From: Actinomycetes bacterium
GTDB taxonomy: Bacteria > Actinomycetota > Actinomycetes > Nanopelagicales > Nanopelagicaceae
Direction: 5' to 3'
Length of the DNA stretch: 64,000 bases
Assembly: GCA_025363635.1 (NCBI GenBank)
Contig: JANYDL010000040.1
Span: forward strand, 1 to 64,000
Shown: one piece after another, positions 1 through 3,653 of the stretch
How positions within the stretch are numbered: the stretch's first letter is position 1
Layout of the letters: the number at the start of each line of letters is the position of its first letter
Translations under genes and position numbers: made by a program
The notes under the pieces: model-generated
Seen by the model: the letters and a program-made list of their open reading frames with translations, nothing else
What the model was told of the DNA's origin: nothing
Database searches by the model: none

Positions 1-2016
1 GTTAATGGAACTAACGGCGCAACAGGTGCCACCGGAGCCACTGGTTCAACGGGAGCCAAGGGTGATACCGGAGCTCAAGGTCAACAAGGATTTACTGGAG
101 CCAAAGGTGACACCGGAGCAACTGGTGCTACCGGTGACCAAGGAATTCAAGGAATTCAAGGTTCAAAGGGTGACACCGGTGCTGCTGGAGCTAACGGCGC
201 AACCGGTGCCAAAGGTGATACCGGTGCCGCTGGAGTTAACGGAACTAACGGCGCAACCGGTGCCAAAGGTGATACCGGCGCAACCGGTGCCAAAGGTGAT
301 ACCGGCGCAACCGGTGCCAAAGGTGATACTGGTTCAACGGGTGCCAAAGGTGATACTGGATCAACGGGAGCGCAAGGTTTAACAGGTCAAACGGGTGACA
401 CTGGTGCAACTGGTGCTGCCGGTGCCCAAGGAATTCAAGGAATTCAAGGTTCAAAGGGTGATACCGGCGCAACTGGCGCTCAAGGTACGCAGGGTGCATC
501 AGGTGCAGCAGGTGCAGCAGGTGCAGCAGGTGCGACGGGAGTAACTGGAGCGACCGGCGTAAAAGGTGCCACTGGTGCAACTGGAAGTAACGGCGCGACC
601 GGTGCTCAGGGAACTCAAGGAATTACGGGCGCGACCGGTGCTCAAGGAACTCAAGGAATTACGGGCGCGACCGGCGCCCAAGGCGTGCAGGGTGCTCAAG
701 GAACTACGGGCGCGACTGGCGCCCAAGGCGTGCAGGGTATTCAAGGTATTCAAGGTATTCAAGGTTTGACAGGTCCCGCTGGACCCGCTGGACCCGCTGG
801 ATTAATTGGAAACACTGGTACTACCGGCGCAAGCGGCGCAACGGGCGTGGCAGGACCCAAAGGTGATACGGGTGCCGCTGGTGCGCAGGGTCCCGCTGGC
901 CTCTCGTGCGTAAACACGACCGGTAGTGGAACCAGCGCTGATGACCAGAAGAAACTCAAAGACGCTGAGGATTTGAAGGTCAGTGAACACGCGAAAGGTG
1001 ATAAGGCCACGCAGGATTATCAAAACGCTGACAACAATCGGATAACCACGGCTACGCTTGCAGCCACTTTGGCGCTAAGTCCAGCGGCTTCAAACTCAGA
1101 AAAATCAGCTGCCCAAGCAGCGGCTGACAATGCAAAGAAGACAATGGACGATTTAAAGAAAATTAAGGATGATGAAGACCTGAAGGTCGCAGATGCAGAC
1201 AAGAAAGCAAAGGATGCCGAAGATGCATATGGTGGCTCCTCCGGTAATTGCACGGGTGCTACAGGTGCACAGGGTCCAGTAGGAGCAACAGGCGCTGCCG
1301 GAACTACGGGATCCACGGGAGCGACCGGTGCAACTGGTCCTCAAGGGCTTGCTGGTCTGACAGGTGCTACCGGAGCTACGGGTCCCCAAGGCCTACAAGG
1401 CCTTCAGGGCCTTCAAGGACCACAAGGAACCGTAGGGCCTGCCGGTCCCGCAGGAACGCCAGGTACTGGCGGACCACAAGGTCAACAGGGATCCGTAGGT
1501 TTGACTGGACCAATCGGTGCAACTGGTGCAACGGGCGCTACTGGAGCCGTAGGTCCTATCGGTCCAATTGGAGCCACTGGCGCTACGGGAGCCGTAGGTC
1601 CGATCGGTCCAATTGGAGCGACTGGCGCTTCTGGGGCGCAAGGCATAAAAGGCGACACGGGAGCTCAAGGTCCAAAGGGTGATATCGGAATGACGGGTCC
1701 TATCGGTCCTCAAGGTGCTCAAGGTCCTATCGGTCCTATCGGTCCTCAAGGTGCTCAGGGTGCCCAAGGCTCTCAGGGTGCCCAAGGCTCTCAGGGTGCC
1801 CAAGGCTCTCAGGGTGCAAAGGGAGACGCTGGCGCTACTGGAGCCCAAGGTCCAAAAGGTGACGTTGGTCCCGCAGGCCCTGCGGCTCCATCTGGCACTG
1901 CAGTCTATGTTTGCGTAAAAGATGATGACGGCAGCATGTCATGGGGTGCATGCGATGGTTCAAAGGGCCACGAAACAAGTGGACATCACCAATATCAGGT
2001 TAAGGCAAACAGCTGA
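1..2016 (+). CDS. Collagen-like Gly-X-Y repeat protein (5' truncated by window)
   Basis: The frame is open from base 1 with no start, so the N-terminus lies upstream; 671 residues are visible. Residues 1 to about 300 are Gly-X-Y triplets rich in GAT, GAK and GDT. Residues about 303-417 form a non-collagen insert rich in Lys, Asp and Ala, probably helical or coiled-coil, with a Cys at each edge (codons at 907 and 1249). A second Gly-X-Y block runs to about residue 628. A 43-residue tail with two Cys (VCV and GAC) and a His-rich end follows. Proteins of this kind form triple-helical stalks on bacterial surfaces (family knowledge). The stop overlaps the next start by one base (TGATG), which suggests translational coupling to two membrane proteins. 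An internal GTG at 685 lies inside the repeat and is not the start. Surface location is inferred, because the signal peptide is not visible. Confidence 0.9.
250..357 (+). repeat. Four tandem 27-bp units coding nine-residue collagen repeats
   Basis: Units start at 250, 277, 304 and 331 and each encodes G-(A/S)-T-G-A-K-G-D-T. They are nearly identical at the DNA level, and a further copy of the unit starts at 196. This points to expansion by slippage or unequal recombination, so allele length may vary between strains. Confidence 0.85.
592..663 (+). repeat. Two tandem 36-bp collagen-coding units
   Basis: Units at 592 and 628 differ by a single base and encode [13 protein letters not shown] degenerate third copy follows at 664. 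They lie in the first Gly-X-Y domain. Confidence 0.8.
1759..1812 (+). repeat. Three tandem 18-bp units coding GAQGSQ
   Basis: Units at 1759, 1777 and 1795 are identical and encode Gly-Ala-Gln-Gly-Ser-Gln. They lie near the end of the second Gly-X-Y block of the collagen-like gene. Confidence 0.85.
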
Positions 2017-2801
2017 TGAGTGATCCGAAAACCACGGCTGGGCGCATCGAAGACGAGTTCCGCGCAAGAGAAAGTGTTCTGCGCCCCGAGGCATACGTCT
2101 TTGGACAAGCGGTCTCACCTGAATTTCATGCCGCTTTTGAAAAAGAGTATCGCCTGCACGTTCCTCATAGGAGCATGTGGTGGCGTTACCTTGGCGTAGC
2201 TTTAGTTACAGCGATTCTTACCTTTGCTATCACTTGGGCTATCGCGGCGTCGCGGCCAGTAACTTTGACTCTTGCATCCACTTCCGTTGGAATTGCTGCG
2301 ACGCCAAAGGTCTTCACGCAAACCACATCTTCATCGGGGTCAAGTACATCCACGGCCGCAGCAACGGCCAATAATTCCGGTGGAGCGGCTTTGACGGAAG
2401 CTCAATTGAAGGCAGAAGTGAGCGCGCTGGGTGGTGGAATTTACTGGGCCGGATCAGTAACTAATTCATTCTACACACTCAACCACATCAAGAGTGGTCA
2501 AGATTTTGTGAGATATTTACCTGAAGGGAAAGGACTGGGTGACGCTACTCAGAATTACCGAGTAATCGCCACGTATAGGGATCCCAACGCATTCACAACG
2601 GTGACCACGGCGGCGAAAATATCTCAAGGGGTAAGTTTTACAAATCCTGACGGTTCATTTATTTATTACGCAAAAGAGACACCTTCACACGTTTATCTTG
2701 TGATTAAGAATCTGCCTTACCAAATTGAAATTTTTGATCCAGTCCCGGGTTCGTCGCTCAAACTTGCTAAGACCCCAGGACTTATTAAGTCGGTAATCTA
2801 A
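2016..2801 (+). CDS. Single-pass membrane protein, unknown function
   Basis: I do not recognise this 261-residue protein. Residues 1-55 are charged and probably cytoplasmic. Residues about 58-78 form one hydrophobic membrane segment. A Ser/Thr-rich linker (about 92-122) leads to an exported domain of about 140 residues. The ATG at 2016 overlaps the stop of the collagen-like gene by one base, so the two are probably co-translated. It may anchor, assemble or modify the collagen-like protein (inference from position only). No catalytic motif is evident. Confidence 0.8.
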   Translation: MSDPKTTAGRIEDEFRARESVLRPEAYVFGQAVSPEFHAAFEKEYRLHVPHRSMWWRYLGVALVTAILTFAITWAIAASRPVTLTLASTSVGIAATPKVFTQTTSSSGSSTSTAAATANNSGGAALTEAQLKAEVSALGGGIYWAGSVTNSFYTLNHIKSGQDFVRYLPEGKGLGDATQNYRVIATYRDPNAFTTVTTAAKISQGVSFTNPDGSFIYYAKETPSHVYLVIKNLPYQIEIFDPVPGSSLKLAKTPGLIKSVI

Positions 2802-2840: not shown

Positions 2841-3653
2841 ATGGCTAACGAAAGAGAAACGGCTTTCAGGCTTCCGCAGTCAGAGACCAAAAAAGGTCAA
2901 ATGATGTTGATTTATTTACCAGAGGGCTCCGTGATCGTTGATCGAAATAACGTTGACATGAATGACACGATGCGTGCGGCGCACGATCCTTTCACCGCGG
3001 CGTCAATGGCCGGCCCTTCAATTTTTCAAAACGCCACACGTACGGTACATCCGGAGATGGTCACGGTCGACCCTGCATACGTCCCAAGCGGAATGGGTCG
3101 CGGAGAGCGTTTATATCTACGACGTAGACGCCGCATTAATTGGTTGCATGTAATTAATCTCCACTTCGCTAGTTACATTGCGATAGTGTCCGTAGTTCCA
3201 CTTTTACTTTCCGCTCTATTTGGCATTTCAATATTCACAGCTAAGTCGCACATCATCAATGGAAATATCCAGTCGGGGCAACTCTTGGTGGCCCATGAAA
3301 AGGCCGTTGCCCAACTTTCAAAGGGCGATCTCGTACTTTTTCGTAGTGCAACGAGTTGGAGATTATTGGTTAGGCAAGTTACAGACCTCACAACGACCGG
3401 AGCATCTACTACGATTTCAACTAATTCAGGTGCCAATACAGCGTTAACTGAGGTTTTCACGTTAGATAATTACGCGCAAGTTCGTTACGTAAGTAGCTAT
3501 ATTCCGTTCTTAGGCTTTGTCACTATGTTCTTCTCTTATCTTGGGGTCAAAGTACTCGTGGTGCTTGGCGTGCTCTTTGCCAACATTTTTGCTTTCTACC
3601 GCCGACGCATGGCTTTGCCGCGCGACGACAAAATGATTTATGTGTCAAGGTAA
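2841..3653 (+). CDS. Two-TM membrane protein with a possible degenerate signal-peptidase (S26B/SipW-like) fold
   Basis: The start is set at ATG 2841, which has an AAAGGTG ribosome site just upstream; an in-frame GTG at 2832 lies inside that site. The product has 270 residues. There is an N-terminal cytoplasmic region of about 100 residues ending in RRRRR (94-98), a membrane segment at about 108-134, an outer domain, and a second segment at about 221-252 followed by RRR. The outer domain reads like SipW-type signal peptidases (GQLLVAHEKA, then KGDLVLFRS, then a LLVRQVTD strand). However, the usual catalytic Ser motif is absent and the HR of the HRV strand is replaced by VR. This resemblance is by eye and tentative. 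It is the third gene of the collagen-like group. Confidence 0.6.
   Translation: MANERETAFRLPQSETKKGQMMLIYLPEGSVIVDRNNVDMNDTMRAAHDPFTAASMAGPSIFQNATRTVHPEMVTVDPAYVPSGMGRGERLYLRRRRRINWLHVINLHFASYIAIVSVVPLLLSALFGISIFTAKSHIINGNIQSGQLLVAHEKAVAQLSKGDLVLFRSATSWRLLVRQVTDLTTTGASTTISTNSGANTALTEVFTLDNYAQVRYVSSYIPFLGFVTMFFSYLGVKVLVVLGVLFANIFAFYRRRMALPRDDKMIYVSR

What the first reader, a model, noticed from the sequence alone, without database searches (positions are those of the whole stretch)
2841..3653. Possible inactive signal-peptidase-like protein
The outer domain between two TM segments has the GD-LVLF and strand pattern of SipW-type peptidases but no visible catalytic Ser or His. A dead peptidase fold could act as a chaperone or anchor for the collagen-like protein.
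Basis: inference. Interest (0 to 1): 0.5.

Follow-up and report, generated by a model that had tools for sequence, protein, structure and literature searches.

The report
Dead signal peptidase beside bacterial collagen
A membrane protein built like an enzyme that trims secreted proteins, but with its cutting residues gone, is kept as the third gene of a collagen-like gene cluster in several small actinobacteria, and probably works as a holder or assembly helper instead of a cutter.

Summary
Window 2841-3653 encodes a 270-aa two-TM protein whose outer domain is homologous to ER-type (S26B, SipW/Sec11) signal peptidases: TIGR02228 E 1.8e-6, hhalign probability 99.7 against SipW of sister genomes, Foldseek top hits human SEC11C/A. 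Its catalytic residues are gone. In one clade (support 100/100) His and Asp are lost in 11 of 11 members and Ser in 10 of 11; the 21 SipW rows compared keep all three. Decay is unlikely: collagen-like gene, membrane protein P2 and dead peptidase stand in this order in 9 of 11 loci, window included, in two genera, and these 9 collagens share a C-terminal tail. The nearest precedent is streptococcal SipA, a dead signal peptidase needed for pilus assembly (PMC4049620, abstract and passages). A chaperone or anchor role is likely but untested. Against strict dependence: one genome has a tail-type collagen before the same downstream transporter without P2 or the dead peptidase, and related tails occur with P2 alone. 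P2 looks like the core partner.

The parts
2841..3653 (+). Catalytically dead S26B (SipW/Sec11-like) signal peptidase paralogue, 270 aa, two TM segments
2889..2942 (+). Cytoplasmic N-terminal motif KKGQMMLIYLPEGSVIVD (residues 17-34), the best conserved stretch of most of the dead clade; not seen in the 16 SipW rows
   Evidence: 13 of residues 18-35 invariant in the 6 rows; divergent in L036 and cut in L034; looser in the second genus
3141..3221 (+). First TM helix (residues 101-127)
3222..3509 (+). Outer S24/S26-like beta domain (residues 128-223)
3252..3254 (+). Codon of Ile138, in the column of the catalytic Ser of SipW
3372..3374 (+). Codon of Arg178, in the column of the catalytic His; Arg in 7 of 8 same-genus members, Gly in one, Ile/Val in the three of the second genus
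3429..3431 (+). Codon of Gly197, in the column of the catalytic Asp (KGDAN)
3510..3614 (+). Second TM helix (residues 224-258 of the model)
2016..2801 (+). P2: 261-aa membrane protein (one TM, outer domain), start codon overlapping the collagen stop codon by one base; recurring neighbour of collagen-like genes
1..2016 (+). Collagen-like protein (Pfam Collagen E 2.8e-77), frame open from base 1, cut by the contig start
1903..2013 (+). C-terminal tail of the collagen-like protein (C..G..WG.C), shared by the 9 cassettes

Best explanation
Shown: the protein is a relative of the ER-type signal peptidase SipW in a clade that lacks the Ser-His-Asp set, with a predicted fold that is kept and, in most members, a conserved cytoplasmic N-terminal motif; it is the third gene of a collagen-like / P2 / dead-peptidase cassette. 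Inferred: all three act together at the membrane. The collagen-like precursor is exported by Sec and its ordinary signal peptide is removed by the housekeeping signal peptidase I, of which the genome has a family match. Its C-terminal tail is then held by the membrane partners P2 and the dead peptidase, whose former substrate cleft or outer sheet binds a strand of the client without cutting. This holds, registers or anchors the collagen-like chains at the cell surface while they trimerise, much as SipA supports pilus assembly in streptococci.
For: S26B homology; 4 of 8 members match TIGR02228 at E <= 1; hhalign; fold. Catalytic columns: 0 of 11 have His, 0 of 11 Asp, 1 of 11 Ser (L040, in a run of serines); 18 of 18 SipW rows and 3 of 3 added keep all three. 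One clade, support 100/100. Maintained gene: open frames in 11 of 11 (229-360 aa with read-through to the previous stop; L034 cut by a contig edge); dN/dS 0.15-0.31 in the 6 of 28 pairs where it could be computed (synonymous sites near saturation). Gene order collagen-P2-dead peptidase in 9 of 11 loci, genera g1 and g16. Tail in 9 of 9 cassette collagens. In 296 family genomes no tail match outside those 9 reached E 1e-12; the next is 1.7e-5 (the 9 built the model and match by construction). Signal peptides look ordinary in the 5 of 9 collagens seen from the start, and no tail holds a TM (by eye). Housekeeping signal peptidase I match at G000:C20, E 5.7e-40. Precedent: SipA.
Against: No binding, export or localisation evidence exists. 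G003 has a tail-type collagen gene directly upstream of what looks by eye like the window's downstream ABC transporter, without P2 or dead peptidase between (L137), so that collagen is kept without them there. G310 and G338 have collagen-like genes with a related tail and a P2-like gene but no dead peptidase next in line (L138, L140). Other P2-like genes stand beside collagen-like genes with different tails. One dead copy (L036 in G014) has neither partner beside it. The strongest conservation in genus g1 is in the cytoplasmic N-terminus, which a purely external binding role does not explain. In SipA a mutation meant to block the cleft did not stop pilus polymerisation (PMC4049620, passage), which weakens the idea that the cleft is what works.
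Confidence: 0.5

Rival explanations
1. The protein mainly works on the inside: a membrane-spanning signalling or docking protein whose dead outer domain senses the collagen-like protein and whose conserved N-terminal motif acts on a cytoplasmic partner (regulator or translocon).
For: The N-terminal motif is the most conserved stretch in most genus-g1 members, variable linkers follow it, and it is not seen in the 16 SipW rows. In the second genus response-regulator-like ORFs (label by eye) lie beside 2 of 3 cassettes (L122, L124).
Against: The motif is looser in the second genus, divergent in L036, and gave no family match in the window protein. By eye, no one regulator is shared by the 9 cassettes in the ORF tables.
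Confidence: 0.2
2. P2 alone serves the collagen-like protein; the dead peptidase is a dispensable passenger of the operon, or is being lost.
For: P2-like genes accompany collagen-like genes without the dead peptidase; G003 lacks P2 and the peptidase after its tail-type collagen; the peptidase changes faster than P2 (32-35% against 46-53% identity to the window's proteins in the same five loci).
Against: Open frames in 11 of 11, gene order kept in 9 of 11 loci across two genera, dN/dS well below 1 where it could be computed (near saturation).
Confidence: 0.15
3. It is still a peptidase, using other residues.
For: One member (L040) has Ser in the nucleophile column and Glu in the Asp column; Arg fills the His column in 7 of 8 same-genus members.
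Against: The three columns vary between members (Ser column I V H H S L H A Y Y Y; Asp column G G T T E T T G K R R), so no replacement set is conserved. Arg is a very poor general base (general knowledge).
Confidence: 0.06
4. It is a decoy or inhibitor that binds SipW substrates or an active SipW.
For: Three of three second-genus cassette genomes also carry a SipW over the family cut-off.
Against: Seven of seven genus-g1 genomes with the dead gene, the window's own included, show no SipW over the cut-off (some are incomplete, G014 83%). It sits with collagen and P2, not with the TasA-like ORFs (label by eye) seen beside active SipW genes.
Confidence: 0.05

Closest known systems
SipA of Streptococcus pyogenes (signal-peptidase-like pilus assembly protein, PDB 4n31; PMC4049620, abstract and passages seen)
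   Same: Signal peptidase fold without the catalytic residues, encoded with the parts of a surface polymer; aligns to model residues 128-223 with Z 8.4, 85 residues, 2.5 A
   Different: SipA is a relative of Ser-Lys SPase I with Asp48/Gly85 instead (PMC4049620); this one is nearest the ER-type SipW models, has a second TM and a conserved cytoplasmic N-terminus, and goes with a collagen-like protein and P2. Whether sortases or pilins lie near was not searched for.
SipW / TIGR02228 ER-type signal peptidase (S26B)
   Same: Homologous domain and TM arrangement
   Different: No Ser-His-Asp set; scores below both curated cut-offs; different gene neighbours
Human SEC11A/SEC11C
   Same: Best Foldseek matches, probability 1.00, E 4.6e-3 and 2.8e-3
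   Different: Active subunits of the signal peptidase complex (general knowledge); distant likeness, 18% identity

Membership tests
S26B signal peptidase (SipW, TIGR02228) | Catalytic Ser in S-x-S-M-x-P | tested here: not met
   Ile138; 10 of 11 clade members lack Ser in this column
S26B signal peptidase (SipW, TIGR02228) | Catalytic His (HR) | tested here: not met
   Arg178; 0 of 11 have His
S26B signal peptidase (SipW, TIGR02228) | Asp of KGDAN | tested here: not met
   Gly197; 0 of 11 have Asp
S26B signal peptidase (SipW, TIGR02228) | Score over the curated family cut-off | tested here: not met
   27.9 of 51.85 bits; NF046067 29.7 of 190 bits
S26B signal peptidase (SipW, TIGR02228) | Homologous domain (common descent) | tested here: met
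   E 1.8e-6 / 4.2e-7; hhalign probability 99.7 over 145 columns
S24/S26 peptidase fold | Fold of the outer domain | tested here: met
   SEC11C/A are the two top Foldseek hits (E 2.8e-3 and 4.6e-3; none of 700 reached 0.001); SEC11C Z 8.8, LexA C-domain Z 8.6, SipA Z 8.4. Caveats: eIF5A/EF-P domains score as high (Z 9.4) over some 62 inner residues, the tool gives 7-8 as a typical best Z for models without a clear match, mean pLDDT is 62 and the alignment had 5 rows. The sequence homology carries more weight than the model.
SipA-like dead signal peptidase | Signal peptidase fold with catalytic residues replaced | tested here: met
SipA-like dead signal peptidase | Derived from P-type (Ser-Lys) SPase I | tested here: not met
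   The window protein matches the ER-type models only; one of 8 clade members also matches TIGR02227 (bacterial SPase I) at E 0.019. No P-type rows were put in a tree.
SipA-like dead signal peptidase | Required for assembly of a surface polymer | not testable with these tools
   Needs a deletion
SipA-like dead signal peptidase | Intact peptide-binding cleft | not tested
   The model was not inspected residue by residue

The most novel reading that the evidence does not exclude
A new kind of collagen assembly device: an ER-type signal peptidase that lost catalysis and now captures the C-terminal strand of a bacterial collagen (the conserved WG-x-C ... tail) in its former substrate cleft, together with P2, so that three chains are held in register and anchored at the membrane while they fold.
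Probability: 0.2. Interest if true: 0.75.

Novelty: new variant of a known kind. Interest (0 to 1): 0.5.

Why it matters
How bacterial collagen-like proteins without an LPXTG or TM anchor are held on the surface and brought into register is poorly understood (general knowledge). A linked, conserved membrane pair gives named parts to test. It would also be an ER-type counterpart to SipA, suggesting that signal peptidases have been turned into assembly factors more than once.

Tried and rejected
A PDB sequence search with the dead-clade profile found no relative (best E 0.4, an unrelated protein). Pfam found no S24/S26 match for the window protein; one of eight clade members gave a weak PF10502 match, E 0.057. 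Viral contigs: none.

Replacement of SipW by the dead form: within genus g1, 0 of 7 genomes with the dead gene and 12 of 14 others have a SipW over cut-off (shared ancestry not corrected for), but 3 of 3 second-genus cassette genomes have both, so mutual exclusion is not a rule.

A relation between the YLPEG motif of the dead peptidase and the RYLPxG stretch of P2: hhalign gave probability 2.5% over another region; rejected. My shuffle test for it timed out.

The P2 model is poor (mean pLDDT 50) and its fold search found nothing reliable (weak hint 3v7b). P2 has no PDB sequence relative at E <= 1 and no convincing Pfam match (best E 0.0018, ABC2_membrane_3, in 2 of 9 members).

Rows dropped: the first tree held four rows translated from the wrong strand or frame (L021, L023, L070, L073); I dropped them and rebuilt. 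Of the hits I left out the 49-residue match L053:3554-4375; a further SipW-like frame, L049:12300-12893, was not a hit and was not aligned. In the family search (50 of 296 genomes with a match) I examined the 20 loci given plus G014's second copy (11 dead, 10 with the active motif); the weaker hits of other genomes were not all examined, so further dead members may exist. The neighbour table was cut in the middle (L046-L048 not fully seen). The motif script missed L113 because it required Pro; direct translation showed Ser, His and Asp kept.

Papers: searches (open-licence PMC only). None of the listed titles and abstract starts describes a dead signal peptidase with a collagen-like protein. 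PMC4049620: outline, abstract and passages seen. PMC10269814: passages only; they do not name SipW's catalytic residues. All others: search listing only.

Full report
What is there. The finding lies near the start of contig C14 of a 1.85 Mb genome whose relatives with the same cassette are MAGs named Actinomycetes or Actinomycetota bacterium, one with 'groundwater' in its isolate name. Three genes run in one direction: a collagen-like gene cut by the contig start (1-2016; Pfam Collagen E 2.8e-77), P2 (2016-2801), whose start codon overlaps the collagen stop codon by one base, and the gene in question (2841-3653), 39 bases after P2 and behind a GAAAGGTG stretch. An ABC transporter ATPase and permeases follow from 3944 (by eye).

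It is a signal peptidase relative. The domain between the two TM segments matches SipW (NF046067, E 4.2e-7) and TIGR02228 (E 1.8e-6), below their cut-offs. Four of eight clade members match TIGR02228 at E <= 1. The profile of eight members aligns with a profile of fourteen SipW homologues at probability 99.7, E 1.4e-25, over 145 columns. AlphaFold2 with a five-row alignment gave mean pLDDT 62 and pTM 0.40, with block means of 65-91 over residues 131-240. The top two Foldseek PDB hits are SEC11C and SEC11A, E 2.8e-3 and 4.6e-3, probability 1.00; no hit reached E 0.001. VIA-align gives SEC11C Z 8.8 (135 residues, 5.4 A), LexA C-domain Z 8.6 and SipA Z 8.4; eIF5A and EF-P domains reach Z 9.4 but over only some 62 residues of the inner sheet, and rows within 1 Z are tied.

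It is dead. I aligned 11 members of this clade with 21 SipW rows (18 read out, 3). The 21 SipW rows keep Ser, His and Asp. In the clade the Ser column reads I V H H S L H A Y Y Y, the His column R R R R R G R R I I V, the Asp column G G T T E T T G K R R, in the order window, L034, L037, L038, L040, L039, L035, L036, L122, L123, L124. The only Ser (L040) stands in a serine run. The clade has support 100/100; the root is a midpoint, and the tree cannot say how often catalysis was lost before the clade. That these columns are catalytic in SipW is recalled knowledge. In the phylum-wide sample 28 of 396 genomes had a match; the nine loci given besides the window's (L113-L121) all keep the catalytic residues (8, L113), the other matches were not examined.

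It is maintained. Eleven of eleven frames are open (one cut by a contig edge). dN/dS could be computed for 6 of 28 pairs of eight dead members (0.15-0.31) and for 5 of 15 pairs of six P2 proteins (0.07-0.25), but synonymous sites are near saturation, so only the direction should be trusted.

The cassette. Collagen-like, P2 and dead peptidase stand adjacent in this order in the window, L035, L037, L038, L039 and L040 and, in another genus, L122, L123 and L124: 9 of 11 loci. Of the other two, L034 ends at a contig edge inside the gene, and L036 is a lone second copy in G014 without partners. All nine collagens end in a tail with invariant C-G-W-G-C positions. In 296 family genomes the tail profile gave nine matches at E <= 1e-12, the nine cassettes from which it was built; six weaker ones followed (E 1.7e-5 to 0.044), of which G003, G310 and G338 are collagen-like, G010 is not, and G040 and G224 were not looked at. 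Collagens beside P2-like genes L083 and L085, and one about 2.5 kb from an active SipW (L050), have other tails.

Results against a simple story. In G003 a tail-type collagen stands directly before what looks by eye like the same ABC transporter that follows the window's cassette, with no P2 or peptidase between (L137); its frame runs to the end of the locus, apparently the contig edge. In G310 and G338 a collagen-like gene with a related tail is followed by a P2-like gene and then another protein. P2-like genes also neighbour collagen-like genes elsewhere in the window's genome (L083, L084) and in another genus (L085). P2 is thus the more general collagen partner and the dead peptidase an addition to one branch. 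Active SipW genes sit instead beside TasA/camelysin-like ORFs (that label is my reading of the sequences). In genus g1, dead gene and SipW over the cut-off do not co-occur (0 of 7, against 12 of 14 without the dead gene); in the second genus they do (3 of 3).

How it probably works. Shown: predicted membrane protein, outer peptidase domain without catalytic residues, conserved gene partners. Inferred: the collagen-like chain is exported by Sec (ordinary-looking signal peptides in the 5 of 9 homologues seen from the start, by eye) and trimmed by the housekeeping signal peptidase I (family match). Having no membrane anchor of its own at the C-terminus, it is held by P2 and the dead peptidase during assembly. 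SipA of Streptococcus pyogenes lacks catalytic Ser and Lys, keeps the cleft and is essential for pilus polymerisation (PMC4049620; abstract and passages). In that paper a mutation expected to block the cleft had no effect on polymerisation, so the cleft itself need not be the working surface. The conserved cytoplasmic motif is not explained by this model and keeps a signalling or docking rival alive.

Novelty. Dead signal peptidases are known (SipA). An ER-type one, with two TMs, in a collagen-like/P2 cassette was not found in my searches of open-licence papers; subscription papers were not searched. I file it as a new variant of a known kind.

Noticed in passing
L137 (G003 contig 78) 387-1719: A tail-type collagen fragment lies directly upstream of what looks like the ABC transporter that follows the window's cassette, with P2 and the dead peptidase absent: a natural comparison for their absence.
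   Followed up: partly
L035:10324-10944, L037:8128-8745, L050:2531-3133: A methyltransferase-like ORF (YWRNRYAKGQNSGSGSYG; the label is my reading) follows two cassettes and also neighbours a collagen-like gene in another genus; it might modify collagen or a glycan.
   Followed up: no
L083, L084 (window genome contigs 63 and 16), L085: Further collagen-like genes with P2-like neighbours; P2-like genes form a family with 8 matches in the window's genome.
   Followed up: partly
L041, L043, L044, L045, L051: Active SipW genes of sister genomes lie beside TasA/camelysin-like ORFs and paired regulator-like ORFs (labels by eye).
   Followed up: no
L138, L140: Collagen-like protein with a related tail, then a P2-like protein with a lysine/alanine-rich N-terminus, without dead peptidase next in line: a possible simpler form of the system.
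   Followed up: no
window 2889-2942: The conserved N-terminal cytoplasmic motif of the dead peptidase matched no Pfam or NCBIfam family.
   Followed up: partly
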